NCBI RefSeq assembly: GCF_000062885.1
Contig: NC_009142.1
Location: 1,229,584-1,293,583, forward strand
From: Saccharopolyspora erythraea NRRL 2338
Lineage (GTDB): Bacteria > Actinomycetota > Actinomycetes > Mycobacteriales > Pseudonocardiaceae
Reading direction: 5' to 3'
DNA: 64,000 bases
Numbering within the stretch: the first letter of the stretch is position 1; every line of letters begins with the position of its first letter. The notes under the pieces were generated by a model, which was given only the letters and a program-made list of their open reading frames with translations, was not told where the DNA came from and made no database searches. Both the position numbers and the translations under genes were made by a program. Of the stretch, positions 16,332-36,830 are shown piece after piece.

Positions 16332-16404
16332 GGGGCTGTGGCGCAGCTGGTAGCGCACTTGACTGGCAGTCAAGGGGTCACGGGTTCGAATCCCGTCAGC
16401 TCCA
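16332..16404 (+). tRNA. tRNA-Ala (GGC)
   Basis: 73-nt cloverleaf. GGGGCTG pairs with CAGCTCC as acceptor stem (one G-U), D arm GCGC...GCGC, anticodon arm CTTGA-CTGGCAG-TCAAG with GGC at positions 34-36, T arm ACGGG-TTCGAAT-CCCGT, discriminator A at 16404. CCA is not encoded. Its 3' 43 bases lie in the 44-bp sequence repeated at the far end of the integrated element, so the present 3' half came from the element and restores an intact tRNA. Confidence 0.96.
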
Positions 16405-16405
16405 C
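16362..16405 (+). other. attL: 44-bp attachment repeat within tRNA-Ala 3' end
   Basis: Exact 44-bp match to 36787-36830. It covers the tRNA anticodon loop to one base past the discriminator. The flanking bases differ on both sides (g/t before, c/t after), which fixes the repeat boundaries. The adjoining integrase gene marks this as the junction restored by the element. Confidence 0.93.
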
Positions 16406-16411
16406 CCAAGG

Positions 16412-16486: not shown

Positions 16487-17689
16487 CTAGACGGCTCGGA
16501 GCTGTGGACCATCTGTGGACCGCCGAAGGTGTTTCGAGAGCAGCGCGCCGGCGTCGCTGACCGACTGCCGGTCCGGATGGAGGTACCTCTGCGTCGTGGC
16601 CAGTGACGCGTGCCCGGCAATCTTGCGCAGGTGATGAACGGGCACGCCGGCATCTGCCATCCACGTCAGGCCGGTGTGGCGTAGGTCGTGGCGCCTCAGG
16701 TGCTCGTAGCCGAGCCGGGTTGCGACCTCATCCCATGAGGTCGCGTCACGGAGGACCGCGGTCGTGATCCGCCCGCCACGGGGTCCGGTGAACAGCCGGG
16801 CGTCCAGCGTGCCGTCGGTCTGGGCGATCCGCCGCTGCACGAGTTCACGAACCTCATCGATCAGCGGCACGGTGCGGGCCCGCTTGCCCTTCGTTCCTTT
16901 GTCGACCAGGCCACCTGGCGCGGTGGTGGTCTGACGCCGGACATTCCATGTCCACTCGGTGGTGTTGATGTCTCTGACTCGGCATCCGGAGACTTCGCCA
17001 ATGCGGGCAGCGGTGCAGGCCGCGAAGATCACCACGTCGCCCCAGCCTTCGTACTCGGTAGCGGAAGCCGCTACGAGTGCATCCGAGAGCTTCGTGAGGG
17101 TGGCCCAGTCGGGCAGCGCGAGCGAACGCGGATCGTCGAGCTCGTCTTCGGCGCGAGCGAGTTCTCGTTGCCATCCGGTCACCCTTGCCGGGTTCCGATC
17201 GATGATGCCGTCCCGCAGGGCTTGCTCCATGACGCGCACAAGCGGGGCGATGCTGTTCTTGATCGTCGATTCGCTGTATTCGTCGGCGATCCAGGCATGC
17301 ACGGCTCGGTCTACGGCTCCATTGGTGATCATGCGGACTGGGATGTGACCGAGGGTCGGAACAACGCGCTTACGCCATCCCGCCAGGTACGGATCGCGGG
17401 TCTTGTCTTCCACACCCCGGAGGGCGAGCGCCATGTTGGCGTCGCCGTACTCGGCAAGACTCATGTTGGCGGCGATCGGGTCGATGCCTCCGGAAGCTGC
17501 TCGCTTCATCAGGTCGATCCACGCCGCAGCCTGCTCTTCGTCCTTGTGCGACTCGGACAGAGAACGACGCTTGCTCGTCTGCGGGTCCGTCCAGCGCACG
17601 CGAGCGCGGTACGGCGCTGGTCGGTTCGGCATGTATTCGACGTCCGACGAGACCTTGACGCCGATCGGCGGTCGCTTGGCGCTGTTCAC
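16487..17689 (-). CDS. int: Tyrosine recombinase, AICE integrase
   Basis: 400-aa site-specific recombinase. Catalytic residues in the order of the family: Arg about 229 (TAARIGEVSG), His334-Arg337 (HDLRHTG), His360 (KIAGHASL) and nucleophile Tyr369 (TQRYLHP). The N-terminal half contains the SAM-like core-binding domain (DYSE..STIKNSIAPLVRVME region). GTG at 17689 with upstream AAAGGAA is preferred over the longer frame from 17749, whose first 20 residues merely translate the GTGACA repeats. It adjoins attL, so it should act on tRNA-Ala. The last codons overlap arm-type repeats. Confidence 0.95.
   Translation of the reverse strand: MNSAKRPPIGVKVSSDVEYMPNRPAPYRARVRWTDPQTSKRRSLSESHKDEEQAAAWIDLMKRAASGGIDPIAANMSLAEYGDANMALALRGVEDKTRDPYLAGWRKRVVPTLGHIPVRMITNGAVDRAVHAWIADEYSESTIKNSIAPLVRVMEQALRDGIIDRNPARVTGWQRELARAEDELDDPRSLALPDWATLTKLSDALVAASATEYEGWGDVVIFAACTAARIGEVSGCRVRDINTTEWTWNVRRQTTTAPGGLVDKGTKGKRARTVPLIDEVRELVQRRIAQTDGTLDARLFTGPRGGRITTAVLRDATSWDEVATRLGYEHLRRHDLRHTGLTWMADAGVPVHHLRKIAGHASLATTQRYLHPDRQSVSDAGALLSKHLRRSTDGPQLRAV
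16503..16521 (+). other. Putative integrase arm-binding repeats, left end
   Basis: GTGGACC-ATCT-GTGGACC at 16504-16521, about 100 bp inside attL and within the integrase C-terminal codons. The same spacing and orientation occurs about 100 bp inside attR (36675-36692). Arm-type integrase sites are expected at such positions; assignment is by placement and repetition. Confidence 0.55.
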
Positions 17690-17718: not shown

Positions 17719-17795
17719 GACAGTGCGGTGACGGAGGCGTCACCGTCATTCGTGCAGGTCAAGGCTGGTTTGGTGACACGGTGACAGCGGTGACA
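17719..17795 (-). repeat. GTGACA-repeat module, copy 1 (rep 3' end / int leader)
   Basis: Read on the minus strand it begins TGTCACCGCTGTCACCGTGT, then TTGACC, GAA and GGTGAC at the same spacing as two other copies at 32094-32170 and 33502-33577. It spans the last codons of the RepA-like gene and the leader of int. Direct TGTCACC units plus opposite GGTGAC units suggest a protein-binding array: replication origin, transfer locus or operator. Confidence 0.7.
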
Positions 17796-18795
17796 CTTCT
17801 GTCGTGGGGTCGGTGTCACCGTCGATCGGGAAGTACTTCCCGCTGCTGGTGGCATTGAGCTGGCCGTCGCCTGCCATGCGTCGACAGGCCTGCTTCACCG
17901 ACGACAGCTCGATTCCCGTGGCCCGCGCGATAGCAGTCGGCCCGTCGCCTGGGCTTTCGCGGACGTGGCGGAGGATGGTGGCGCGGGTGTCGTGGAGGGT
18001 GTGGTCGGTGGCGGGGCCCTCGAGGAGCTGCCAGGCGCCGCTATTGGGGTGGAAGGCCAAGGCGTATTCGGCTTCGTCGATGTCGCGGCCGGTGACCTGT
18101 AGGACGCCGTCGGCTTTGTTGCGGCCTCTGCGGAGCACGAGGGTGGCGTCAGCGGCGCCGGCGATGCCGTTGGAACCGGAGACCGTTTCGAGGAAGTCCT
18201 CGGAGCCCATCTTGCGGACGTGGTGCACGAGCACGAACGCGACGCCGTAGCGGTCGGCAAGTTGTTTGGCGCGGCCGATGGCGGCGTAGTCGGCGTCGTA
18301 GGCCGACATCCCCGCGGGCGGTGTGCCGCGCATCTTGGCGAACACGTCGAGCACGACCATGCGAGCGTCCGGGTTCTGATCCAGCCACGCCGCGATTGCC
18401 TCGTCTCCACCCGCGGGCAGGGTCGGACAACTTGTGGCCAGGCTGAGGTTGCGCGGGGCGGGCTCGTCTCCGAGGAGCTTGCCCATGCGGGTCTTCAACC
18501 GCCGCGGGGTGTCTTCCAGGGCGAGGTAGAGCACCGGTCCGGGTTCGACATCGACCATGTCGAACGCGCGGCCGCCGGAGGCGACGGCGAGGGCGAGTCC
18601 GAGGGACATCCAGGACTTACCGACCTTGGGTGGTCCAGCCAGGACGTTGACGCCTTCGGCGAGGATGCCGGGCACTGCCCACCGAGGGTCGGGGAAGTCG
18701 GTGGCCATGAGGGCATCGGCGGTCCAGGCGTCGGCGAGTGCTTCGGCCGGGTGGCGGCGCAGGGGCCGGACGTTGTCGGGCTCGGTGGTGCTCAC
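17746..18795 (-). CDS. RepA-like replicative ATPase (AAA_25 family)
   Basis: 349-aa RecA-fold ATPase resembling RepA helicases of plasmids and the helicase-like partner of primase-polymerases. Walker A is GPPKVGKSW (about residues 54-62), Walker B MVVLDVFAKM, followed by FVLVHHVRKMGSED. The C-terminus has a helix-turn-helix-like segment (GPTAIARATGIELSSVKQACRR). GTG at 18795 follows GAGGTGA. The longer upstream frame is the antisense shadow of the methyltransferase. Probably unwinds the element for replication together with the prim-pol and SSB encoded upstream in the same run. Confidence 0.85.
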   Translation of the reverse strand: MSTTEPDNVRPLRRHPAEALADAWTADALMATDFPDPRWAVPGILAEGVNVLAGPPKVGKSWMSLGLALAVASGGRAFDMVDVEPGPVLYLALEDTPRRLKTRMGKLLGDEPAPRNLSLATSCPTLPAGGDEAIAAWLDQNPDARMVVLDVFAKMRGTPPAGMSAYDADYAAIGRAKQLADRYGVAFVLVHHVRKMGSEDFLETVSGSNGIAGAADATLVLRRGRNKADGVLQVTGRDIDEAEYALAFHPNSGAWQLLEGPATDHTLHDTRATILRHVRESPGDGPTAIARATGIELSSVKQACRRMAGDGQLNATSSGKYFPIDGDTDPTTEVSPLSPCHQTSLDLHE

Positions 18796-18799
18796 GTGG

Positions 18800-19546
18800 T
18801 CACCTCGTGGTGGTGTGGGCGAGGAGGGCTCGCCCAATGTGCTCGGTGACGGCGGGGACGACGGCGTTGCCGAGGGCTCGCAGGTGGGAGGCAACCAGTC
18901 GTTTGGGAAGCCCATGAGCCACGCGACCCACGTCGGGTTCAGGTAGCCACCGCTCTGCCCGCGTTTGGCCACCCGCTGCTCCAGAGCGGGGGCGTCCGGG
19001 CGGTAGTGGGGCCGGTAGGTGCAGTGGGCGTTGGCCATCGTTGCCCGCGGGGTGGGCCAGTACGAACAGTCGCTGTCGTGTGTGTGGGGCACCCAGGGAG
19101 CACGCGGGGACAACCGACCATTCGACCAGGTACCCGAGGTGGGAAAGGTCGTCGAGGATGATGCGGAAGGCGTCGGTGTCGCGGAGCAGGGCGGCGACGT
19201 TTTCGGCGAGGACGTATCGAGGTCGAATAGCGTCGATGACGTCGCGCATCCAGGGCCAGCCCCAGCGTTCGTCGGCGATGCCGCGGCGGCGTCCGTAGGT
19301 GCTGAAGGGCTGGCAGGGGAATCCGCCGGCCACGAGTTCGACGTCGGGTCGGGGCTGGGAGTGCCACCAGTCGACAGCGGTGCGGACGTCGTCATGACGG
19401 GGGACCTCCGGCCAGTGGTGTGCCAGGACTTGGCGGCACCAGGGATCGAGTTCGACTTGGCCGACGACGCGCATGCCAGCGCGTTCCAGGCCGAGTTCGA
19501 GGCCGCCGATCCCGGCGAACAGCGACAGCACGGTCAGCGGGTTCAT
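18800..19546 (-). CDS. DNA (cytosine-5)-methyltransferase
   Basis: 248-aa C5 methyltransferase. Motif I is LFAGIGGLELGLERAG, catalytic Cys78 is in GGFPCQPFS (motif IV), ENV at 115-117 (motif VI), QRLFVLAHP (motif VIII) and a terminal LRALGNAVVPAV (motifs IX-X). The target-recognition region is short, as in phage-borne enzymes, so specificity cannot be guessed. ATG at 19546 overlaps the prim-pol stop (ATGA), and the stop lies 5 bp before the RepA-like start, so it is embedded in the replication operon. No cognate restriction gene is visible; it probably protects the element during transfer. Confidence 0.92.
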   Translation of the reverse strand: MNPLTVLSLFAGIGGLELGLERAGMRVVGQVELDPWCRQVLAHHWPEVPRHDDVRTAVDWWHSQPRPDVELVAGGFPCQPFSTYGRRRGIADERWGWPWMRDVIDAIRPRYVLAENVAALLRDTDAFRIILDDLSHLGYLVEWSVVPACSLGAPHTRQRLFVLAHPAGNDGQRPLHLPAPLPPGRPRSGAAGGQTRAERWLPEPDVGRVAHGLPKRLVASHLRALGNAVVPAVTEHIGRALLAHTTTR

Positions 19547-20487
19547 GCGGCCACCCGCCTCGGGCGCGCGGCCCCGGCCCGCAGGCCGGAGGCGATGGTC
19601 TGCCGCGCCTGGGCCCACTGGTAGGCGCCGGCGGCGACGTGGCTCTGTGCGGCGTGTAGCAGCAGGTCGGTGACCTCCTGCTCGCCGAGCGCGCCGCCGG
19701 CGACGAGTTGACCGAGCGCGGTGGCGGCGCAGTACAGCGCGAAGTTGCGTTGCCCGCCGTCGGCACTAGTGACGCGCCGGACCTCGCCCTCGATCGCTGC
19801 CCGCAGGAACCCGGCGCGGCGCCCGCTGATCGTGGCCACCGGGGTGGGTTGCTGCGGGGGCAACTCCTGGGGCCGCAGTCGCTCGATCAGCCAGCCCGGA
19901 AGGGGCATGAGCGGGCGGTCGTGGGTGATGGTGTAGGTGCCGTCGCGGCGGATCGAGCCGGGTGCGACGACGTAGCCGCCGTGGCCGCGGGTGTCGATGC
20001 CCCAGCCGAGCCCGTTGCGCTCGCCCTGGGTGATCCTCAGCCCCGCGTCGGCGGGGACGGTGAAGTACAGGTGTGTGCCCCCGCTGGGCGTGGCGACGGT
20101 GAAGGTCTCCAGCGGAGGCGCCTGTCCGGCCTCGGCACACAGCAGCAGAAACACATCCATCCCAGACTCGACACCCTGGGCGGCCCAGCGGTCGGGGACG
20201 GGCTTGCCGGGCTTGGGCACGTCGAAATCGACCACGAGGAGTCCGGCGGGGCCGGTGGCCAGGCCGATGTTGTAGGCGTCGTGGGTCCAGCAGGCGCGGA
20301 TGCGCTTGGCGTAGATCGTGGCGCGCTGCTCCCATTTGAGGTGCCCGTCGGCGCAGACGCCGGTGCGGGGGCAGTCGTCGACGCCGTGCAATGCGGGGAA
20401 GCTGCCACCGGGCTTGAGCGGGAACACCGGCCACCCGCGGGCGGCCACCGCCAGCGCGGCGTCGAGTAGTGCCTGGGACGCGGGCAT
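19543..20487 (-). CDS. Bifunctional DNA primase/polymerase (prim-pol)
   Basis: 314-aa archaeo-eukaryotic-type primase-polymerase. The N-terminal motif is GWPVFPLKPGGSFPA; the metal-binding DxD is in LLVVDFDVPKPGK. The central ATPSGGTHLYF and the closing GWGIDTRGHGGYVVAPGS are hallmarks of the PF09250 domain. CPRTGVCADGH may bind zinc. ATG at 20487 follows GGAGG. This is the replication initiator type of one class of AICEs, used instead of RepSA. It couples to the methyltransferase by an ATGA overlap. Confidence 0.93.
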   Translation of the reverse strand: MPASQALLDAALAVAARGWPVFPLKPGGSFPALHGVDDCPRTGVCADGHLKWEQRATIYAKRIRACWTHDAYNIGLATGPAGLLVVDFDVPKPGKPVPDRWAAQGVESGMDVFLLLCAEAGQAPPLETFTVATPSGGTHLYFTVPADAGLRITQGERNGLGWGIDTRGHGGYVVAPGSIRRDGTYTITHDRPLMPLPGWLIERLRPQELPPQQPTPVATISGRRAGFLRAAIEGEVRRVTSADGGQRNFALYCAATALGQLVAGGALGEQEVTDLLLHAAQSHVAAGAYQWAQARQTIASGLRAGAARPRRVAA

Positions 20488-22778: not shown

Positions 22779-25103
22779 TCAGTCGCTCGCGTCGGCGGGG
22801 GATCGCCGCGCCACTTGTTCACGCACGGTGAGGGGGTCGACGTGGTAGAGGTTCTTGGTGGACGGGACCTTGATGCCCTGGTCGGCCAGCTCTGCCACGA
22901 GCTGCGGGCCGGTCATGGGCTTGCCGCCGCGGTGGTAGGTGCGCCCGTACTGGGCGACCAGGGCCTTGGCGGCCTCAGCCGCGGAGACCTTCTCCTCGCC
23001 CAGCACGTGGTCGAGGTCGGTGAGCAGGTCCCGCGGCTCCTGCTCGACCGCGGCAATCGCGGTGATGTTGGCGGCCTGCCGCAGCTGCATGGCGCGTTCG
23101 ACGATGGCTTTGTGCTGGCCACGCGGCACGTAGTAGCAGCGCATGAGGCCGGGCTTGGCCAAAAAGCCGCGGCTGGTCATCGCCGTGCCCACGTCACCGG
23201 GGCCTTCCTCGGTGGCCGGCTCCAGCCCGACGGCGGAGATACCGCGCCGGTAGGCGCTGGTCCCGAGGATCGCGTCGTTGGACTGCTGGTCACCGATGGC
23301 GAAGCAGGCCGTGTTCGACATGACCGCCATGAGCTTGCGGGGCAGGGAGTCGGTGGAGGGCTCGGGGGTGAGGAACATCAGGGTGATGCCGTACTTGCGG
23401 GAGGCGTTCATCAGCAGGATCGCCAACCGCTGGGCCTCTTTGCCGTGTTCTTCGTGCAGGAACAGGGCCTGGCACTCGTCGATCACCATGATCCGGGGCC
23501 GCAGCCGCGCGTCCTTTTCCGCCAGGCGACGGGAGACCTTTTCCGCGTCGGGGTCGCCATTGCGGGTGTGCTCTGCCAGCGCCTTGCCGCGGATGTCCAG
23601 TTCGGCGTAGAGCTCGCGCAGGGTGTTCATGCACGCCTCGACGGTCTCCTCGCCGGCGCCGGTGACCAGCGACCGCAGGCGGGGACGCATCATCTCGTAG
23701 TCGGCGTTTTGGGCCAGCACGAACACGTCGATGTCGACCAGCGGATCGAGCATGGCGCCCAGGCAGGCGGTGATGGCCAGGGTGGACTTGCCCGAGCCCA
23801 TCATTCCGGCGTTGGCCCAGTTCTTGCCGGAGAAGTGGCCGGTCACGGTGTCGCCGCGCATGTTGACCGCGACCGGGACACCGGCGAAGTAGTCGGTGAC
23901 AGCGGTGGACAGCTCGGCCAGCAGCGGCCAGTCCTCGACCGGGTCGGTGAGCACGCCGGGGTCGGCGATCCACAGGTCGAGCACGCCGGGCTTGTCCTTG
24001 GGTTCGGTGGCCCACACCTCGACCGCCAGACGCCCCAGGTTGTGTGCCAGGACGTTCTTCTTGCGGGCGATCTCGGAGACCGGGACCTGCTGCGGCAGCC
24101 GGATCTGGCAGCGCCAGCCCTTGCCGTCCTTGCCCAGCCCCGTCTCCCACACCCGCGCGGGGTGCGTCGGGGTGCCCCAACCGGCCTTGAACGCCTTGTC
24201 CAGGCCGGAAATGCCCAGGTGACGCAGCGCTCCGAGGATGGAGCTCTCGTCGATGTCGTCGGCGGCATCCTGCTCGTCGTAGGTGGCGGAGGTGACCCAG
24301 TCGGGCAGGTTGTGGGACTGCTTGCCGGTCTTGTGCAGCGCGGCGATCCCACCGACGAGTCCGGCTCCGGTCAGCCACGGGAACAGCGCCATCGCCACCG
24401 ACCACAGGCCGGTCACGGTGTCGGCCACGCCGGTGGCGGTGCCGGCCACGGCGGCCCAGTATCCCTGGGTCCACACGCTCTCCCAGCTCGCGCCGCCGGC
24501 GTTGCCGGGGAAGAACTCCCCGATCTCCGCACCCGCCCCGTAGACCGCGACACCGACGGTGACCAGCAGGAACAGCGCGGACAGGGTAGCCAGGGTGTAG
24601 CCGGCGGCCTTGGTGGCCTTGCCCGCGACGGTGAGCATCTCGCCGATGCGGGACCAGCGGGCGTTGGCCGACTCGCGGCGCTGCTGCTCGAGCACCGCCA
24701 GTTCGCCGTAGTTGCGGTCGGCGCGGGCCTGGCGGATCGCCGCGGTCAGATCGCGATGCAGCAGCCGCGCCCACGCCCGGCTGTTGACGTCGCGGGCCCC
24801 GGCGTAGACGAACATCAGGTGCCGCCGGGCCCCTGCCGAGGCGTCCCACCCGGTGCTGATCGCGCCCGGGGTGGCCTTGATGCCGCGGACCGCGAGGGCA
24901 CCGCCGCGCTGGGCGACCGCCGTGATGCCGGTTCGGGCCGGGGGCTGCTGGTCGTCGCGGACGTCCAGCTCGCGGTCGGCGTCCTGCTCGGTGGTGGTGT
25001 CGGCGGGCAACGCCAGCGTCTGGCCCGCCTGCTGGTGCTGGGGGTGGGGGAACTGGATCAGCTTCGCCCACGTGTCGGTGGTGCCGTGCGGCTGCTCGGA
25101 CAT
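22779..25103 (-). CDS. FtsK/SpoIIIE-type DNA translocase (TraB-like conjugation protein)
   Basis: 774-aa membrane-bound DNA pump. Membrane segments lie at about 167-192 (ATLSALFLLVTVGVAVYGAG) and 230-256. The motor domain has Walker A GMMGSGKST (433-441) and Walker B RIMVIDECQALF (about 537-548). The C-terminal ~120 residues end in a helical region (GPQLVAELADQGIKVPSTKN) that may be the winged-helix DNA reader. In pSAM2-like elements one such hexameric protein moves double-stranded DNA between hyphae. ATG at 25103 with GAAGGGTGA is the real start; the longer frame is shadow. Confidence 0.93.
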   Translation of the reverse strand: MSEQPHGTTDTWAKLIQFPHPQHQQAGQTLALPADTTTEQDADRELDVRDDQQPPARTGITAVAQRGGALAVRGIKATPGAISTGWDASAGARRHLMFVYAGARDVNSRAWARLLHRDLTAAIRQARADRNYGELAVLEQQRRESANARWSRIGEMLTVAGKATKAAGYTLATLSALFLLVTVGVAVYGAGAEIGEFFPGNAGGASWESVWTQGYWAAVAGTATGVADTVTGLWSVAMALFPWLTGAGLVGGIAALHKTGKQSHNLPDWVTSATYDEQDAADDIDESSILGALRHLGISGLDKAFKAGWGTPTHPARVWETGLGKDGKGWRCQIRLPQQVPVSEIARKKNVLAHNLGRLAVEVWATEPKDKPGVLDLWIADPGVLTDPVEDWPLLAELSTAVTDYFAGVPVAVNMRGDTVTGHFSGKNWANAGMMGSGKSTLAITACLGAMLDPLVDIDVFVLAQNADYEMMRPRLRSLVTGAGEETVEACMNTLRELYAELDIRGKALAEHTRNGDPDAEKVSRRLAEKDARLRPRIMVIDECQALFLHEEHGKEAQRLAILLMNASRKYGITLMFLTPEPSTDSLPRKLMAVMSNTACFAIGDQQSNDAILGTSAYRRGISAVGLEPATEEGPGDVGTAMTSRGFLAKPGLMRCYYVPRGQHKAIVERAMQLRQAANITAIAAVEQEPRDLLTDLDHVLGEEKVSAAEAAKALVAQYGRTYHRGGKPMTGPQLVAELADQGIKVPSTKNLYHVDPLTVREQVARRSPADASD

Positions 25104-25198
25104 CTTGTGCTCACCCTTCACGGACTCGCAGGGTCGACGGAGGAGGAGAAAGAGGGGCCGGTGCGGCAGGGGGACGGGACCGCACCGGCCGGTGCGGG

Positions 25199-28273: not shown

Positions 28274-28699
28274 TCAGGCCGCGGCGGTGTCGGGCAGGTA
28301 GCAGTCCCAGCACTGGCCGGCCGAGGTCGGCAGGTAGTAGGGCTTGACCTGCTGGCCGGGCGGGCAGGTCGGGCACGTGCGCCGCGCGGTCAGTGCCCGC
28401 TCGATCGCCGCGCGCTGGGAGGGGGTGGCGGTGCGCTTGGGCTTGGCCAGCTCGATGCGGAACAGCTCGGCGAGTTCCTCGCGCCGGTAGGGCTGGCGGT
28501 GGCGGAATCGCAGCAGCGCCACCGGATCGGCACCGCCGGGGCGCAGGCTCATCTCGCGGAGCTGCCGGCGGGTGGCCAGTCCGAGCCGGGCCGGGACCGA
28601 GCGCCAGGCGAAGACCGGCAGCCCGTCGAGGTGGCCGTGGCAGAACTCCCACGTGCCGTCCCACAGCGTCGTCTTGACGATCGGCCACTGCCGCGCCAT
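28274..28699 (-). CDS. RRQRL-motif-type zinc-binding protein
   Basis: 141 aa. The middle holds GLATRRQLREMSLRPGG, the arginine-rich RRQ-L motif of a family common in actinomycete elements. The C-terminus has CPTCPPGQ and CWDC, four cysteines placed to bind zinc. ATG at 28699 overlaps the end of the upstream gene by one base (stop/start sharing). DNA or RNA binding is likely but unproven; its constant link to AICE transfer genes suggests a regulatory or transfer role. Confidence 0.8.
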   Translation of the reverse strand: MARQWPIVKTTLWDGTWEFCHGHLDGLPVFAWRSVPARLGLATRRQLREMSLRPGGADPVALLRFRHRQPYRREELAELFRIELAKPKRTATPSQRAAIERALTARRTCPTCPPGQQVKPYYLPTSAGQCWDCYLPDTAAA

Positions 28700-29175
28700 C
28701 ACGCGCCCCCGAGTACCGCGGCCAGCGCCAGCGCGACCAGCAGCACCACCAGTCCCGTGACCAGTAGCCGCACCGCCCAGGCGATGCGCCGGTACTTGCG
28801 CCGGGCGATCTGGGAGACCACCACCATCGTCACGGCCACCCGCTCCGGCGAGGACTCCGTGTTGGAGTGCAGCTCCACCAGCTCGGCAGGCTTGGAGCGG
28901 GCCGCGTGCAGGAACGAGCCCGGCTCTCCGGCATCCAGGTAGGGGAAGACCACCGCCAGTAGCACCAGCACGCTCGCCGCGATCGGCACCGCCGCCGCCC
29001 ACAACGCGACCTCAGACGCCGTCGGCAGCGCGGTGCGGGTCAGCGACACCACCCCGGCGAAGGCTGCACCGACCAGCGTCAACAGCGTGGTGGCCTTGGT
29101 GTCGGCCCGTCGCAACTCATCCCGAACCTGACTCACCGCGGCGTTCAAGCTCTCCGTCGTCTCCGCCGACATCAC
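28699..29175 (-). CDS. Pycsar-effector-type (PycTM, DUF5706-like) membrane protein
   Basis: 158 aa. Helical start with the family pattern RDELRRADTKATTLLTLVGA, a first hairpin of membrane helices (to about residue 78, ending VVFPYLDAG), a soluble loop (HAARSKPAELVELHSN), then SQIARRKYRRIAWAVRLLVTG leading into the last membrane helix. This matches the PycTM fold: membrane effectors gated by cyclic CMP/UMP in Pycsar defence. No pyrimidine cyclase is encoded nearby. The start overlaps the excisionase stop (ATGA), so it belongs to the element's main operon. Confidence 0.8.
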   Translation of the reverse strand: MMSAETTESLNAAVSQVRDELRRADTKATTLLTLVGAAFAGVVSLTRTALPTASEVALWAAAVPIAASVLVLLAVVFPYLDAGEPGSFLHAARSKPAELVELHSNTESSPERVAVTMVVVSQIARRKYRRIAWAVRLLVTGLVVLLVALALAAVLGGA

Positions 29176-30325: not shown

Positions 30326-31525
30326 ATGGTTACCGAAGGGCCAATCGGCGAACGCATCCGCATCTACCGCCAGCGGCGAGGGCTGAGCCAGAAGGAGCTG
30401 GCTCACCTGGTCGGCCGCTCGGAATCCTGGCTATCGCAGGTCGAGCGTGGCATCCGCTCTGTCGATCGACTGTCCGTGCTTGTCGACGTGGCGCGGGTGC
30501 TCAAGACCGACGTCGAGACGCTCGCCGGCTACCGGATGGCCTACGCGCCGAACGGACAACCGGAACTTGAAGGGCTGGAGGACATCCGTCAGGCGATGAG
30601 CGCCTACGCGGGGCTCGGACTCAGCCGCACACCGACGAGCAGCGTCGCTGAGATTGCGAGCCTGACCACCGAGGTGCACCAGCGTTACCAGGCAGCCGAC
30701 TACGCGGCTGCTGCTCGGATCCTTCCTGGCTTGATCACTGCCTCAGACGCGGTCGTCAGCGAGAGCGGGTCGGCTGATCTACGGGCCGCGCTGTCGGTGC
30801 AGAGTCAGGCGTATGTGGCCGCGGCAAAGCTGGTCACCAAGATCGGTGACGGGCAACTCGCCTGGATCGCCGCCGACAGGGCCGTCACCGCAGCGATGCG
30901 TGCCGACTCGGACATCCTCAAGGCGATGGCGGCGTACCAGGTCGCTTGCGCGTTCCTCAAGACAGACCGGATCGACCAAGCCGAGCATGTTGCCATCACG
31001 ACGGCTGAGAACTTTGCTGACGACAGCCCAGATGGCCTCTCCGTTCAGGGTGCGCTGTTCCTCATCGGCGCGGTAATCGCTGGCCGCAGGTCTGACCGGC
31101 CAGAGGCAACTGACCGCCTTCGGCGCGCGCAGTATCTAGCGGACGCTCTTGGCTACGACGGCAACCACGGTTGGACCGCCTTCGGCCCCACGAACGTAGC
31201 GATCCACCAGATTTCCGCAGCTGCGGAGCTCGGCGACGCCAAACTCGCCATCGCCAGGGCGGAGGACGTCGAGACGGACGGCCTTCCGGACGGACTCCGC
31301 AGCCGGCGGGCTCAGGTCTTCATCGACACGGCTTGGGCCTACTCGCAGCATCGCGACGACGCGGCTGTTGTCGTCAACCTCATGGAAGCGGAGCGCACCG
31401 CGCCGCAAGCGCTGCGGTACAACGTGATCGTTCGTGAGATGCTGCGCGAGCTGCTGAAGCGTGAACGAAGGTCAGCCACGCCGGGCCTGCGGGCCTTGGC
31501 CAAGCGGTCTGGGGTGCTCCATTGA
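30326..31525 (+). CDS. XRE regulator with TPR-like C-terminal domain
   Basis: 399 aa. N-terminal HTH (RRGLSQKELAHLVGRSESWL, residues about 15-35) and a long helical repeat region resembling TPRs, as in the Streptomyces regulators that sense peptides or partner proteins. ATG 30326 follows AGGTGGG. The stop overlaps the next start (TTGA), so the flavoprotein is co-translated; this pair is frequent in actinomycete genomes and elements. Confidence 0.85.
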   Translation: MVTEGPIGERIRIYRQRRGLSQKELAHLVGRSESWLSQVERGIRSVDRLSVLVDVARVLKTDVETLAGYRMAYAPNGQPELEGLEDIRQAMSAYAGLGLSRTPTSSVAEIASLTTEVHQRYQAADYAAAARILPGLITASDAVVSESGSADLRAALSVQSQAYVAAAKLVTKIGDGQLAWIAADRAVTAAMRADSDILKAMAAYQVACAFLKTDRIDQAEHVAITTAENFADDSPDGLSVQGALFLIGAVIAGRRSDRPEATDRLRRAQYLADALGYDGNHGWTAFGPTNVAIHQISAAAELGDAKLAIARAEDVETDGLPDGLRSRRAQVFIDTAWAYSQHRDDAAVVVNLMEAERTAPQALRYNVIVREMLRELLKRERRSATPGLRALAKRSGVLH

Positions 31526-32052
31526 CGGCAAGCCGCGTTCTCTACGTTGTTGGAACAGCCGCGCCGCCAGTCCTCAACTTGGGCAACCTAATCCGACTAC
31601 TCCGAGCCGAGGGCTGGTTGACGTGCCTGGTTCTCTCTCCGACCGCTGCTGGTTGGGTCGACACAGCTGAACTCGAACAGCTCACGGGGATGCCTGTGCG
31701 TAGTGCGCTTCGTCAGCCGACGGAGCAGGACCCCTTCCCGCCGGCGGATGCCGTTCTTGCCGCCCCGCTAACCTTCAATACCGTCAACAAGTGGGCGGCA
31801 GGCATGAATGACACGACTGCCCTGGGGGTACTGAACGAACTCCTTGGCGCTGCGGTCCCGATCGTTGCCGCCCCATGCGTGAAGTCGTTGCTCCAAAGCC
31901 ATCCGGCCTACCGGGCGAGCGTTGAGCGTCTGACTGAGTCTGGCGTTCGGTTCCTTGAGCAATCCCAGACGGTGGTCAGAACACAAGACGCTGCGGTCGA
32001 TTTCGACTGGCCATCATTGGTTGCGGAAGTCCAGCGGCTGCGTAGCACCTAG
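31522..32052 (+). CDS. Flavoprotein of the HFCD/PPC-decarboxylase type
   Basis: 176 aa. VLYVVGTAAPPVLNLGNLIRL opens like the FMN-binding flavoprotein family (PF02441); ADAVLAAPLTFNTVNKWAAG matches the conserved PASANT-type active-site region, and later PIVAAPCVK. TTG start at 31522 overlaps the regulator's stop. Substrate unknown; the XRE-TPR plus flavoprotein pair may sense or modify a peptide cysteine. Confidence 0.82.
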   Translation: MTASRVLYVVGTAAPPVLNLGNLIRLLRAEGWLTCLVLSPTAAGWVDTAELEQLTGMPVRSALRQPTEQDPFPPADAVLAAPLTFNTVNKWAAGMNDTTALGVLNELLGAAVPIVAAPCVKSLLQSHPAYRASVERLTESGVRFLEQSQTVVRTQDAAVDFDWPSLVAEVQRLRST

Positions 32053-32093: not shown

Positions 32094-32170
32094 GTGTCAC
32101 CGCTGTCACCATGTCACCGAACGCGGGGTGACCTGTGCGAACGATGGTGACAGTACGGTGACACCCCTAT
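32094..32170 (+). repeat. GTGACA-repeat module, copy 2 (upstream of the Shedu 3' end)
   Basis: TGTCACCGCTGTCACCATGT... then GAACGATGGTGACAGTACGG. Aligns without gaps to copy 3 (33502-33577), roughly 80% identical over 77 bp, and to copy 1 on the minus strand. Copies 2 and 3, both plus-oriented, flank the Shedu gene. Confidence 0.8.
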
Positions 32171-32205
32171 GCGCTTCGACACGTCGACATCCCTGCAAGA
32201 AATGG

Positions 32206-33255
32206 TTATTCAGAACCCTCTCGGGATGACTGATCCTTTTCCAGAATGTCTAGTCTGCGCTTGGCTCTGGCAGCCATTTGATCGTACGTAATTACCTGGA
32301 TGCTGTGAAGTCTGGCATTTAGTCCACGGAGCCCCTTGAACCAATTCAGATCCTTTCCCTGTGATCTTCCTATGACGATCGTTGCGCGAGGGTAGTAAGC
32401 CACTATGTTCTCGTAGTCATCCATTCCCTTCTTTGCGCTTTCGTGAAGCTTGTCAAGGTAGCGATGGCACTGCCCGATTGCTTTTGACGAGTCGCTGGAC
32501 CAGTACCACGATTTATGGGAACTGTCCCAGATTATTGGCTCCATTCTTGGCGTCTTGAGTTCGACGATGTCTCTTAGTCCATCCAGCGAATTTTCGAGCA
32601 TCATGTCGACGCTCTCTCTGTTTCCTATGGACCGTACTTCGTCTAGTGACCTGTACTCATCGCCTAGCGCCCAGGCGTGCCGCTCCATCCACCGTTGAAA
32701 ATCTGACTCTGGGTGGTCGGCGCTTGCATCAAGCATTCGATTGAGATCTTCAAGCGCCTGGCGCAGGTCTGCCGATCGAGCCGAAAGCTGAATCGACCGT
32801 ATTAGATGCTCGCCGTCGGGGTCGGCTGCAAGTCGCTTCAGTGAACCGTCGTCTTGTGAAATCTTGCGTATAAGGTTTCCCAGCGTGTGTACGTCGATTG
32901 ATCGTTCGCTGTCGCCATCCTCGTCGGCGCGAAAAACGAAATAGCGACCATTTTCGGGCTGGCTGGAAATGGCTGCGATTTTCTGTAGTTCTTCGCGAAG
33001 CTGCAGAAATTCATCATTATTCAAGGTGAAGTCAACGGGGTATCCTACCTGAAGCCCGCTGTCGTTCTTTTTCCAGTAGCGAACCTTTAGGGATACTTCA
33101 ATTCGTGATTCGCTTCGCGTTATATACCTTGGAATTAACTCGAAGTGTGTTCTTGAGCCCGCGCGCAATGTAATCGGATCGCTATATGAGAGACTTTCCG
33201 CTGCAGCTTGGCGCCGGTCGAAGATATCATCGCCCACGCTGACCTCCTGCTTCAT
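32206..33255 (-). CDS. sduA: Shedu anti-phage defence nuclease (SduA, DUF4263)
   Basis: 349 aa. The C-terminal DUF4263 nuclease domain is clear: FQRWMERHAWALGDEY, then VDMMLENSLDG (Asp217), DIVELKTPR (Glu232, Lys234), AIGQCHRYLDKL (Gln262), ATIVIGRSQG, LNARLHSIQVITYDQM. These form a PD-(D/E)xK centre; Shedu proteins nick foreign DNA as single-gene defence systems. The first ~170 residues are the variable sensor part. GC is visibly lower than in the element backbone, and repeat copies flank the gene, which suggests separate acquisition. ATG 33255 is used. Confidence 0.92.
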   Translation of the reverse strand: MKQEVSVGDDIFDRRQAAAESLSYSDPITLRAGSRTHFELIPRYITRSESRIEVSLKVRYWKKNDSGLQVGYPVDFTLNNDEFLQLREELQKIAAISSQPENGRYFVFRADEDGDSERSIDVHTLGNLIRKISQDDGSLKRLAADPDGEHLIRSIQLSARSADLRQALEDLNRMLDASADHPESDFQRWMERHAWALGDEYRSLDEVRSIGNRESVDMMLENSLDGLRDIVELKTPRMEPIIWDSSHKSWYWSSDSSKAIGQCHRYLDKLHESAKKGMDDYENIVAYYPRATIVIGRSQGKDLNWFKGLRGLNARLHSIQVITYDQMAARAKRRLDILEKDQSSREGSE

Positions 33256-33619
33256 GAAGAATCAACAACCGTGCATCGTGGCTGCCCGAAGAACCGTTAC
33301 GCACACGATGAAGGCTGGACAGGTACGGGCGCAGCGGTTGCAGTGACCGGCATGTCAGCGGCGGTGGGGGTACGTGCCTGAGCCTGTCCTGGTGTCGGAA
33401 GGCTGCGTCGTTCTGGTCGACGCAGCCCGCGCTCGCGGCGGGACAGAACAAGATCTTCGACAGTGCTCGTGAAGTCGGTGACAGAAGTTCTTGTCGCGGA
33501 CTGTCACCGCTGTCACCGTGTCACCGAACCTGGTTTGACCGGCGAGAACGCTGGTGACAGTACGGTGGCAGCCCTAGCTTGCGGTGTCACCGGACAGCTG
33601 AAGACGGCTGTAACAGTGG
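33256..33619. other. Noncoding region upstream of Shedu
   Basis: 364 bp. Contains the presumed Shedu promoter (minus strand), then GTGACA module copy 3 (33502-33577) and the left inverted end of the 325-bp repeat segment (33606-33622). No gene is supported. Confidence 0.5.
33502..33577 (+). repeat. GTGACA-repeat module, copy 3 (downstream boundary of the Shedu cassette)
   Basis: TGTCACCGCTGTCACCGTGT, then TTGACC and GAACGCTGGTGACAGTACGG. Same layout and length as copy 2. Its first 24 bases match copy 1 nearly perfectly on the opposite strand. Confidence 0.8.
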
Positions 33620-33622
33620 TTA
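33606..33622. repeat. 17-bp inverted end, left
   Basis: GGCTGTAACAGTGGTTA is the exact reverse complement of 36636-36652. The pair brackets a 3.05-kb segment that starts and ends with the 325-bp direct repeats. Within copy 1 itself, AACAGTGGTTA (33612-33622) is also inverted at 33934-33944. Confidence 0.75.
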
Positions 33623-33944
33623 ATCGCGCTCGCGTCGTTGGTTCACTTTGGCCTGTACTGCGGGGTGCTCCGGGATAGTCGAATCTCCACTTCGGTTTCG
33701 GACCTTGGCGTCGGTCGCGGACATGCGACACGCCTCGCTCCTATGCTGCCCGCGTCCCATGAGGGCGACGTACGTGCGAGCGCGAGTGCGGGGCAGCATG
33801 CGGAACTAGCCAGGGAGGCTTGTTCGCAAAGGTGTTCTCAAGGCCCTCTCAGATCGCCACAGACGACCGCTTGGCCCCACCCGCGGGTTCTGCCTAGGGA
33901 GCGATCGTTCATGAGCTAAGCCACGCCCTCGACTAACCACTGTT
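33620..33944 (+). repeat. 325-bp direct repeat, copy 1
   Basis: Starts TTAATCGCGCTCGCG and ends CTCGACTAACCACTGTT. Matches 36323-36647 over the whole 325 bp with a single difference seen (CGCAAAGG here, CGCAGAGG there). Open frames inside have no credible start or composition. Contains one member of a hairpin motif family (33836-33878). Confidence 0.92.
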
Positions 33945-34330
33945 GCTGGAACAGTGGGGTCTGCTTGGCGCCGGCGGGAGCCCTCTAGGCGCAAGGTGGC
34001 TGCTCAGGATGCGTGTGAGGCTCTAGCGCCCCCTCTAGACCTAGAGGGGGCTCCTTCTAGGTCTAGAGCGTCGGAATGTCACCGCTGTCCCCTCGGCCTG
34101 GTCAAGGCTGGAGCAGTGGGGGGATTGGCTGTCCTCACGTCGTCGACCACGGCCCGTCAGGCTCTGCCCTGGGCCTAAGGCGCCTACAGCCGGTGGGCGC
34201 AGGAAAGCGGATCTCAGAGCGCGCTGAGATCGCCGTAGACGCCCTGAACGCGAGTGTCGGTACTTGGCGCACTCGTCGACAGGCGTCATGTTCGACTCAT
34301 GACCGCGCCGCAAGCGCACAGCCCCGTCGT
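33945..34330. other. Noncoding region with hairpins and 3' module X of the adjacent membrane gene
   Basis: 386 bp. CTCTAGACCTAGA (34033-34045) is inverted at 34056-34068, and the same bases can pair alternatively as CCCCCTCTAG/CTAGAGGGGG. Module X (about 34084-34179) shares a 20-base exact core, CCTGGTCAAGGCTGGAGCAG (34097-34116), with module Y at 35042-35137. A third motif at 34211-34230 (ATCTCAG-AGCGCG-CTGAGAT) is a perfect hairpin. No gene supported. Confidence 0.6.
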
Positions 34331-34933
34331 CTACCAGATGATCACGCTTTCCCGGTCCCGCTCGATGTATTGCTGATCGACCCAAGGATTGTGTGCTTCA
34401 CCGGGATCACTGTCAGGAAGACGTGACAGCAGAACGACGCGAAGTTCCATCCGGGCAATCTGTTGCCAACCTTCTGGGAGTTTGACTGGAATTTCGAGTG
34501 GCTCGTTCCTGGCTCGGTTGTATTCGTATAGTGAAACCTCATATACGGGCGCGCCGTCCTGACTCGTCTCCGTTGCTGGCTTGAATATCTCACCTCGGTA
34601 CCGGAAATCGACGATTACGCCGGGCGGCCCCTCTTTGTATACTGCTTTGATGACGAATGTTTCTTCAGTTGTCTCAACTGAAAGAGACCACTTTGGTGCC
34701 GCATTGCGATGACTCGTGTCTTCTGTTAGTTCAACGGTCCGGAGCGCGGCAGCCGCGGATTTCTCGGCCGCCTGGGCGGCTTGCTCTGCAACAGGAAGGG
34801 CGCGTTCGGCGGATGCTGCGGATCGCTCTGCTGCGTTTGCCGACTTCCGAGACGCCCACCAGCTCAGGCTGCCTACTCCCAACGCGGCCCCAGCGATGAT
34901 GTTGGTGATAGCGGCAGCTATTCCTTCGTCCAT
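34331..34933 (-). CDS. Membrane-anchored coiled-coil protein of unknown function, 200 aa
   Basis: N-terminal membrane helix (AAAITNIIAGAALGVGSLSWW), then an Ala/Glu/Ser heptad region (about residues 30-70, SAASAERALPVAEQAAQAAE), then a beta-rich C-terminal domain (WSLSVETTEETFVIKAVYKE, MELRVVLLSRLPDSDPG). ATG 34933 with GGAAG upstream is preferred to 35002. Low GC and codon use differ from the element backbone, like Shedu and the next gene. Not recognised; architecture and location fit a defence or exclusion protein. Confidence 0.75.
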   Translation of the reverse strand: MDEGIAAAITNIIAGAALGVGSLSWWASRKSANAAERSAASAERALPVAEQAAQAAEKSAAAALRTVELTEDTSHRNAAPKWSLSVETTEETFVIKAVYKEGPPGVIVDFRYRGEIFKPATETSQDGAPVYEVSLYEYNRARNEPLEIPVKLPEGWQQIARMELRVVLLSRLPDSDPGEAHNPWVDQQYIERDRESVIIW

Positions 34934-35041: not shown

Positions 35042-35137
35042 GCTGCTCCCCTGACCTGGTCAAGGCTGGAGCAGGAGTGGATTGGCGGCCCTGAAGTCGT
35101 CGCCCACGGTCCGGCGGGCACGGTCCGTGGGCAAGGC
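35042..35137. repeat. Module Y, homologue of module X, on the 3' side of the second membrane gene
   Basis: Aligns with 34084-34179 at roughly three-quarters identity, including a 20-base exact core (35055-35074) and shared ATTGGC and GTCGTCG blocks. Each copy lies downstream of a minus-strand membrane/coiled-coil gene. Could be a structured RNA end, a recombination site or a decayed coding remnant. Confidence 0.65.
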
Positions 35138-35213
35138 GTCGGCCGCCCGTGGGAAGCTGGAAATCGTCGATCCGGCACCTGACGGTGGCTTCCACTTCAA
35201 TGCGTGTCCTGGG

Positions 35214-35906
35214 TCAGTTGTCAACCGACTTCGTGCTCTCGCCTGATCCTGCCAAGAGGGACAGGTAATAGGTTATGTCCGCCTCGACTTCGGTCGCAGT
35301 GCCCCATATTTTGTTTAGCAATTCCTCCTTCTTTTCCCTATCTATCACCTCGCCCTTGGTGATGTCATCAAGCAAACCGGTCGCAAAGTGAGAAATGGCT
35401 GCCATTATGTTGTGGAGTTTGTGCACCGGAGGCGGCGCGTCCTTCGGTGAATGCATTCCTGCACTCAGTAGGATGTGGTCAAATTCGGATCTTTTGGTTA
35501 CGACCGCCTCTATAAGTTCGGACACCTGTTTGCGTGTCGCGGAGTAGCTTAAATTATGGTCGGCTGCCAAAAGAAATAGTCTTTTTAGGTTGATGAGAAT
35601 CTCTCTCGACTTGAACAAGATGTCAGATAGTGATTCGCGATGTTTGGCAATCCGGATCTCGTTTCGGTCGGCCTCTGCGGATGCTAGCTGACCCTCCATT
35701 AAGCTGACCTGCTTCTCGGCCGCATCGGCTTGCCGTTTGGCATCGGCTGCCTGGTTCATTGCTGCAACTGCTTGCTCGCTAGCCGACCTGGCTTGCCTGC
35801 TCGCGATTCGTGCCTGATAGGAAGCGATACCCGCGGCTGCGAGTGCAACTACTACTGCGACCCACGCTGCCACGTCGCCCAGCACATTCTCGTCCACGCG
35901 GATCAC
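35214..35906 (-). CDS. Membrane-anchored coiled-coil protein of unknown function, 230 aa
   Basis: N-terminal membrane helix (DVAAWVAVVVALAAAGIASY), then a long coiled coil (about residues 30-85; ASRQARSASEQAVAAMNQAA, EKQVSLMEGQLASAEADR). A helical C-terminal domain follows (FKSREILINLKRLFLLAADH, ISHFATGLLDDITKGEVI). Same N-terminal plan as the neighbour at 34331-34933 but an unrelated C-terminal part. AT-rich for this genome. ATG 35906. Function unknown. Confidence 0.75.
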   Translation of the reverse strand: MIRVDENVLGDVAAWVAVVVALAAAGIASYQARIASRQARSASEQAVAAMNQAADAKRQADAAEKQVSLMEGQLASAEADRNEIRIAKHRESLSDILFKSREILINLKRLFLLAADHNLSYSATRKQVSELIEAVVTKRSEFDHILLSAGMHSPKDAPPPVHKLHNIMAAISHFATGLLDDITKGEVIDREKKEELLNKIWGTATEVEADITYYLSLLAGSGESTKSVDN

Positions 35907-36230
35907 CTTACTGAAGCGCGAGCCATTTGAGATACGGCTCTTCGTTGGTGATTCCGCCTCTGCGAGACACGGAACCGTACGTGCCGCTTGGTCGTACCTG
36001 TGGTTTCCAGGCTTCGGAGAATCGCCCTCAAGGGGCCTGACGTCGCCGTAGATGCACTGTCGAGCACTGCCGGGTGTTTCGGGTGGGCCGCAGCTGTAGG
36101 GCTGCCGGGAACGGGGGCCGCCTGGGGCTCAGTTCGCCCCCCGTGCGGACTGCCCCCCACTGTTCCAGCTGTCCCATCTGACCTGCGAAAAGTGAATCCT
36201 TGCACGGCTGTGAACCAATCGATCCGAGAA
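35907..36230. other. Noncoding region before the tRNA-Phe relic
   Basis: 324 bp. Should hold the promoter of the 230-aa protein gene. A motif near 36011-36062 belongs to the same hairpin family as 34203-34250 and 33836-33878. Otherwise nothing is recognised; small open frames here cross the tRNA relic and are not genes. Confidence 0.45.
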
Positions 36231-36272
36231 CTGAAAAGCGGAAGGTCGGCGGTTCGACCCCGCCCCTGGCCA
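36231..36272 (+). other. tRNA-Phe 3' half (attachment-site relic)
   Basis: CTGAAAA (anticodon loop with GAA), GCGG closing stem, variable AAGGTC, T arm GGCGG-TTCGACC-CCGCC, acceptor strand CTGGCC and discriminator A: the complete 3' half of an actinobacterial tRNA-Phe. No 5' half precedes it, so it is not functional. tRNA-Phe is a known target of actinomycete elements (pSE211). This marks the att end of another element inside the tRNA-Ala AICE. Confidence 0.85.
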
Positions 36273-36287
36273 CCTCGAAGAGCTGCG

Positions 36288-36324
36288 AAAACGGTCCTCG
36301 TCGATCTCGGCGAGGGCCGTTTTT
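36288..36324 (+). terminator. Rho-independent terminator following the tRNA-Phe relic
   Basis: AAAACGGTCCTCG pairs with CGAGGGCCGTTTT (one G-U) around a 10-base loop, ending in a T run. It lies 15 bp after the tRNA-Phe 3' half, as in an intact tRNA gene. Copy 2 of the 325-bp repeat starts in its T run. Confidence 0.85.
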
Positions 36325-36647
36325 AATCGCGCTCGCGTCGTTGGTTCACTTTGGCCTGTACTGCGGGGTGCTCCGGGATAGTCGAATCTCCACTTCGGTT
36401 TCGGACCTTGGCGTCGGTCGCGGACATGCGACACGCCTCGCTCCTATGCTGCCCGCGTCCCATGAGGGCGACGTACGTGCGAGCGCGAGTGCGGGGCAGC
36501 ATGCGGAACTAGCCAGGGAGGCTTGTTCGCAGAGGTGTTCTCAAGGCCCTCTCAGATCGCCACAGACGACCGCTTGGCCCCACCCGCGGGTTCTGCCTAG
36601 GGAGCGATCGTTCATGAGCTAAGCCACGCCCTCGACTAACCACTGTT
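36323..36647 (+). repeat. 325-bp direct repeat, copy 2
   Basis: Second copy of 33620-33944, one mismatch seen. It begins in the T run of the terminator at 36288-36324, so the left junction is different from that of copy 1. The right end runs into the 17-bp inverted end (36636-36652). Confidence 0.92.
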
Positions 36648-36652
36648 ACAGC
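36636..36652. repeat. 17-bp inverted end, right
   Basis: TAACCACTGTTACAGCC, exact reverse complement of 33606-33622. Five bases extend past the end shared by the two 325-bp copies, so the match is not explained by the direct repeat alone. Confidence 0.75.
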
Positions 36653-36666
36653 CATCTGTCGCCACC

Positions 36667-36786: not shown

Positions 36787-36830
36787 ACTGGCAGTCAAGG
36801 GGTCACGGGTTCGAATCCCGTCAGCTCCAC
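36787..36830 (+). other. attR: 44-bp attachment repeat (displaced tRNA-Ala 3' end)
   Basis: Exact copy of 16362-16405. It is the original chromosomal 3' part of tRNA-Ala, now cut off from its 5' half. The tRNA's native terminator follows at 36840. Confidence 0.93.

What the first reader, a model, noticed from the sequence alone, without database searches (positions are those of the whole stretch)
32094..33577. Shedu defence gene sits in a cassette bounded by two copies of a GTGACA repeat module
The sequence shows a DUF4263/SduA gene (Asp217, Glu232-x-Lys234, Gln262) flanked by two ~77-bp plus-oriented modules about 1.4 kb apart that share roughly 80% identity. The same module occurs once more at the rep/int junction of the element, so the element carries a spare homologous site. 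Recombination between modules could load or drop defence cargo. Base composition of the gene differs from the backbone.
Basis: partly seen in the sequence, partly recalled or inferred. Interest (0 to 1): 0.75.

Follow-up and report, generated by a model that had tools for sequence, protein, structure and literature searches.

The report
Shedu cargo between duplicated element-end modules
A phage-defence gene in a mobile element of an actinobacterium sits between two copies of a DNA module that nearly all related elements carry at both ends, and comparison of relatives shows that foreign genes are swapped in and out beside this module, which itself looks more like part of the element's replication machinery than a dedicated cassette site.

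Summary
Two plus-oriented 75-bp modules (32095-32169 and 33502-33576, 85% identical) bracket an SduA/Shedu gene (32206-33255, minus strand, 51% GC against 70% in the backbone). A third copy lies inverted at the rep/int junction; these are the only three in the 8.2-Mb genome. The host element is a 20.4-kb tRNA-Ala Prim-Pol AICE (16362-36830).

In 40 relatives the module proved to be a conserved organ, not a Shedu accessory. It consists of TGTCNC-type iterons around a TGACC[A/T]GC core. One minus-oriented copy sits at rep/int and one plus-oriented copy near attR. Of 28 elements with mapped ends, 26 have the distal copy, and in 21 it lies 262-586 bp inside attR. Its sequence tracks Rep (an RSF1010 RepA-like helicase fold with a predicted winged helix) and not the integrase.

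Cargo differs between closely related elements beside the distal module, and several elements carry two or three distal copies with unrelated genes between them. The Shedu segment fits a cargo insertion that duplicated the distal module. Module recombination is plausible but inferred. The modules are most likely Rep-linked, origin-type sites serving as recurrent cargo boundaries. The third copy is inverted, so exchange with it would invert DNA, not load or drop Shedu.

The parts
16332..16406 (+). tRNA-Ala(ggc); its 3' part 16362-16405 is attL
   Evidence: ARAGORN; 44-bp direct repeat
36787..36830 (+). attR (44 bp identical to attL)
16487..17689 (-). tyrosine integrase
   Evidence: PF00589 1.3e-21; start
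17739..17797 (-). module M3 (proximal copy), overlapping the 3' end of rep, with further iterons down to about 17710
17746..18795 (-). Rep: AAA_25 helicase with predicted C-terminal winged helix; fold closest to RSF1010 RepA
   Evidence: PF13481 5.2e-36; AlphaFold2 model; Foldseek top hits 1olo/1nlf
19543..20487 (-). Prim-Pol primase-polymerase
   Evidence: PF09250 8.6e-42; start
30326..31525 (+). XRE-type regulator, left of the cargo slot
   Evidence: PF13560; homologs up to 82%
31522..32052 (+). flavoprotein paired with the regulator
   Evidence: PF02441 1.7e-9
32095..32169 (+). module M1, distal type (core TGACC at 32129)
32206..33255 (-). Shedu nuclease gene sduA (349 aa), low GC
33502..33576 (+). 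module M2, distal type (core TGACC at 33536)
33620..33944 (+). R1: copy 1 of a 325-bp repeat (99.7%) bracketing a 2.7-kb insert
34084..34209 (+). repeat a, left of the 34331-34933 gene
   Evidence: 77.5% to 35042-35166
34331..34933 (-). cargo ORF, no family
35042..35166 (+). repeat b, right of the 34331-34933 gene
35214..35906 (-). cargo ORF, coiled-coil-like, no family
36226..36272 (+). internal att remnant: tRNA-Phe 3' end, followed by a terminator-like hairpin
   Evidence: 98% to the attR of relative G122; 90% to ends of a second AICE at 7.82-7.84 Mb
36323..36647 (+). R2: copy 2 of the 325-bp repeat

Best explanation
Shedu is cargo in the attR-side slot of a Prim-Pol/RepA-helicase AICE. The module is a conserved cis-acting site of these elements: three left iterons, a TGACC[A/T]GC core and inverted right iterons. 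It most likely belongs to the replication system, as a Rep-bound origin-type site. Each element normally carries one copy at rep/int and one inverted copy near attR, so in the circular form the two copies flank attP-int. Cargo is gained and lost at the right end, mostly immediately left of the distal module. Here, recombination between right ends of related AICEs most likely inserted M+Shedu, leaving M1-Shedu-M2; the reverse exchange between M1 and M2 would drop Shedu and restore one module. Shown: anatomy, conservation, orientation, distance to attR, covariation with Rep, and cargo differences beside the module in near-identical elements. Inferred: Rep binding, origin function, and homologous exchange as the route.
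For: Modules were found in 36 (proximal) and 29 (distal) elements. All 45 proximal copies are minus and all 35 distal copies plus; the one odd hit belongs to the neighbouring element of a tandem array. There were no hits at the same threshold in 1.16 Mb of reversed control sequence. 26 of 28 elements with mapped att have a distal copy, 21 within 262-586 bp of attR. Module-arm similarity correlates with Rep (Mantel r=0.46, p=5e-4; given Int 0.33, p=5e-4) and not with Int (0.07, p=0.22; given Rep 0.02, p=0.42). Rep is modelled with a C-terminal winged helix, and its best PDB matches are RSF1010 RepA. G112/G174, 96% alike over 8.7 kb, differ in the genes up to the left edge of the module and match again from there to attR. 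G345 and G332 share a 530-aa gene lying between module-type right ends in elements with different att sites, with att remnants after internal modules. In the window, removing the R-bracketed insert brings M2 to 548 bp from attR, as in relatives.
Against: M1 and M2 share no exact run longer than 16 bases, short for efficient homologous recombination. No empty-site relative with the same flanks was found. M1 and M2 could have duplicated without Shedu and been separated by it later. Rep co-variation could reflect shared backbone ancestry, since Prim-Pol and other backbone genes correlate too. No replication origin of this AICE type was found described in the papers searched, so origin function is untested.
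Confidence: 0.6

Rival explanations
1. The modules are dedicated recombination sites of a cassette system (integron-like) that captures single defence genes.
For: Single minus-strand genes with repeats on both sides occur several times at the right end: Shedu, the 34331-34933 gene, and the 530-aa gene in G345/G332.
Against: Modules exist in nearly all relatives with or without cargo. Their sequence does not track the integrase. No second recombinase was seen. Junctions also occur at att remnants and at R, not only at M.
Confidence: 0.1
2. The modules are operator sites of an element regulator; Shedu merely sits between two operators.
For: Iterons in direct and inverted array suit a repressor; XRE regulators lie next to the distal end in the window and several relatives.
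Against: The distal module usually lies in a gene-poor 260-590 bp stretch beside attR. The first plus-strand gene, a rough proxy for the regulator, correlates more weakly than Rep (r=0.27). A second AICE of the same genome carries a 91%-identical RRQRL zinc protein but different iterons.
Confidence: 0.15
3. The modules are recognition sites of the conjugative translocase (clt-like).
For: Short repeated motifs are used by Streptomyces TraB proteins (general knowledge). The candidate translocase (22779-25121) correlates with module sequence (r=0.32).
Against: Its correlation is weaker than that of Rep. Known clt loci are single sites (general knowledge), whereas this is an inverted pair in fixed places.
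Confidence: 0.1
4. M1/M2 are a local tandem duplication unrelated to Shedu; Shedu arrived by ordinary illegitimate insertion between them.
For: Tandem modules without cargo exist: distal in G273, proximal in G112 and others.
Against: In G345 and G332 multiple distal modules also enclose cargo, so association with cargo is recurrent, though the sample is small.
Confidence: 0.25

Closest known systems
Prim-Pol AICEs (SLP1/pSE211-type actinomycete integrative and conjugative elements; PMC3218068)
   Same: Integration at the 3' end of a tRNA gene, tyrosine Int, Prim-Pol next to a Rep gene, Nudix gene, cargo near one att end
   Different: The paired inverted module at rep/int and attR was not found described in the papers searched; no FtsK/SpoIIIE Pfam hit in the tested ORFs of this element
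RSF1010 (IncQ) replicon
   Same: RepA-like hexameric helicase fold, separate primase, iterons, and a pair of oppositely oriented sites (compare ssiA/ssiB, from general knowledge)
   Different: Primase is Prim-Pol and not RepB'; no RepC found; winged helix fused to the helicase; the two sites are split to either side of attP-int
Shedu (SduA) defence
   Same: DUF4263 C-terminal nuclease domain with the D...ExK...Q residues
   Different: Nothing exceptional; a low-GC subfamily with no close relative in the 346 family genomes searched
ICE accretion / cis-mobilizable elements (PMC9513070 for AICEs)
   Same: Stacked att remnants and right-end fragments, including an internal tRNA-Phe att remnant here
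   Different: The Shedu unit itself carries no recognised att remnant; its borders are the modules
Integron gene cassettes
   Same: Single genes separated by imperfect-repeat sites
   Different: No integron integrase; the sites are a conserved organ of the element and do not track Int

Membership tests
Shedu | DUF4263/SduA_C domain | tested here: met
   PF14082 5.4e-13; PADLOC SduA 3.7e-93
Shedu | PD-(D/E)XK-type active-site residues | tested here: met
   D217, E232-x-K234, Q262 present
Shedu | anti-phage activity | not testable with these tools
   needs a phage challenge
AICE (Prim-Pol type) | tRNA att direct repeats and tyrosine integrase | tested here: met
AICE (Prim-Pol type) | Prim-Pol with adjacent replication gene | tested here: met
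   PF09250 and PF13481
AICE (Prim-Pol type) | FtsK/SpoIIIE translocase | tested here: inconclusive
   22779-25121 has only a weak P-loop match (Zot, 8e-4)
RSF1010-type replicon | RepA-like hexameric helicase fold | tested here: met
   Foldseek ranks 1, 2 and 7 are RSF1010 RepA
RSF1010-type replicon | RepB'-type primase | tested here: not met
   Prim-Pol family instead
RSF1010-type replicon | paired, oppositely oriented single-strand initiation sites | tested here: inconclusive
   inverted module pair present, function untested
Integron cassette array | integron-type integrase acting on the sites | tested here: not met
   only the tRNA-specific Int found; module sequence does not track Int
Cis-mobilizable element / accretion | cargo unit bounded by att sites | tested here: inconclusive
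   att remnants bound cargo in G345/G332 and the R insert, none recognised around Shedu

The most novel reading that the evidence does not exclude
The two inverted modules are halves of one bipartite replication origin that integration splits to opposite ends of the element and excision brings back to about 2 kb apart on either side of attP-int. Replication would thus be coupled to excision by DNA architecture, and the same half-site would double as the landing place for defence cargo. In support, proximal and distal cores differ in type (A at +5 in 36 of 45, T in 30 of 35), and two other AICEs of this genome carry both inverted cores side by side.
Probability: 0.2. Interest if true: 0.85.

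Novelty: new variant of a known kind. Interest (0 to 1): 0.6.

Why it matters
The papers searched gave no replication origin for Prim-Pol AICEs. A conserved inverted module pair whose sequence follows Rep gives a concrete candidate and a simple test. It also gives a mechanistic address, the left edge of the distal module, for where these elements exchange defence and other cargo, so new cargo genes can be found by looking there.

Tried and rejected
Close Shedu relatives as direct cassette controls: family homologs are only 24-35% identical and the 29 loci examined have no module nearby at the working threshold; a genome-wide scan found none. Empty site through the neighbouring flavoprotein/regulator: the scan with the flavoprotein found nothing, and regulator homologs up to 82% lie in other contexts without a module. 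Integrase or Xis binding as the module's role: rejected because its sequence does not track Int. The RRQRL zinc protein (28274-28702) as module binder: it gave the highest Mantel r (0.68, only 17 elements), but a 91%-identical copy sits in an AICE with different iterons. R (33620-33944) as a widespread mobile repeat: found nowhere else in 249 genomes. PDB sequence search with Shedu gave only weak, irrelevant hits.

Full report
Observation. Two direct 75-bp modules, M1 32095-32169 and M2 33502-33576, are identical at 64 of 75 positions and bracket a minus-strand gene, 32206-33255. Its GC content is 51%, against 70% for the backbone. A third copy, M3, lies at the rep/int junction at 17739-17797 but is inverted. 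The genome (8,212,805 bp in one contig, which from memory is the size of Saccharopolyspora erythraea NRRL 2338) has no fourth copy. The element spans 16362-36830 between 44-bp repeats of a tRNA-Ala gene. It encodes an integrase, an AAA_25 Rep, a cytosine methylase, a Prim-Pol, an SSB and a Nudix protein.

Relatives. Rep homologs in 346 family genomes gave 40 oriented loci. Blasting each rep/int junction against its own element showed a second, inverted copy roughly 9-19 kb away in most of them. A rule-based scan (TGTC-type arms, a TGACC core and an inverted arm, without using position or strand) found 45 proximal copies in 36 elements, all minus, and 35 distal copies in 29 elements, all plus, including relatives from other families. 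A single odd hit belongs to the next element of a tandem array in G225. The scan rules were written after seeing examples, but reversed sequence gave no hit at the same threshold, and strand and distance to attR are independent outcomes. Of 28 elements with mapped att sites, 26 have a distal module, and in 21 the last one lies 262-586 bp inside attR. In the other five, the window element included, extra sequence, mostly with cargo genes, lies between the module and attR. Some of these elements are close relatives of each other, so the counts are not fully independent.

What the module is. Its arms differ between elements (TGTCACC, GTCCCC, CTGTCCCAC, CTGTCACTC and others) but match within an element (mean similarity 0.49 within against 0.27 between). 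Arm similarity follows Rep and Prim-Pol and is unrelated to the integrase, also after controlling for Rep. Rep folds as an RSF1010 RepA-like helicase with a predicted C-terminal winged helix. These are the signs expected of Rep-recognised iterons at an origin, but binding and origin function are inferred. The core base at +5 is A in 36 of 45 proximal copies and T in 30 of 35 distal copies, so the two ends are differentiated. Two other AICEs in the same genome, in which no homolog of this Rep was found, carry both inverted cores next to each other at one locus, with other arms (read by eye).

Cargo. Between near-identical elements the backbone is collinear and then differs at the right end. In G112/G174 the genes up to the left edge of the module differ, and sequence from the module to attR matches again. 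In G171/G032 the sequence is collinear for 12.5 kb and the right end differs, module included, until about 150 bp before attR. The relative with the closest Rep, G068, has an HNH defence-type gene between module and attR. G345 has three distal modules with different genes between them, and G332 has at least two plus a weaker third; they share a 530-aa gene in this position although they sit in different tRNA genes, and att remnants follow internal modules. In the window, the right end is itself layered. Beyond M2, a 325-bp repeat R (99.7%) brackets 2.7 kb containing two more low-GC genes, one of them bracketed by a 77.5% repeat, and a tRNA-Phe att remnant. Without that insert M2 would lie 548 bp from attR, the distance seen in relatives. 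A second AICE of the genome (285 kb) resembles the outer parts of the insert without the two genes.

Judgement. The Shedu segment is cargo in a conserved slot, and module duplication around it fits a recurring pattern of right-end growth by insertions that duplicate a stretch of the end. M1xM2 exchange could delete it; M3 could not take part in loading or dropping because it is inverted. The idea of modules as dedicated cassette sites is not supported. Whether homologous exchange at the module caused the gain is inferred: exact matches between M1 and M2 are at most 16 bases, and the empty sister element was not found.

Noticed in passing
30326-32052; L169-L181: The XRE regulator and flavoprotein pair has homologs (regulator up to 82%) in many Pseudonocardiaceae; in L171, L173, L175, L176 and L177 it is directly followed by CRISPR-like arrays.
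   Followed up: partly
33620-33944 and 36323-36647: A 325-bp repeat, 99.7% identical, found nowhere else in 249 genomes, with one 25-bp inverted-repeat end on each outer side (33602-33626, 36633-36657).
   Followed up: partly
36226-36322: A tRNA-Phe 3' end with terminator-like hairpin inside the element: an att remnant of another AICE.
   Followed up: yes
L153-L156 (7.823-7.840 Mb and 273.5-285.3 kb of the same genome): Two further AICEs that carry both inverted cores side by side with other iterons.
   Followed up: partly
28699-29175: A Pycsar-effector-type membrane protein (PycTM) encoded next to the RRQRL zinc protein; homologs in the corresponding region of G291 and G345.
   Followed up: no
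L095, L096 (G225): Two near-identical AICEs in tandem, 17.8 kb apart.
   Followed up: no
22779-25121: Likely translocase or ATPase of the element without an FtsK/SpoIIIE Pfam match, only weak P-loop similarity.
   Followed up: no
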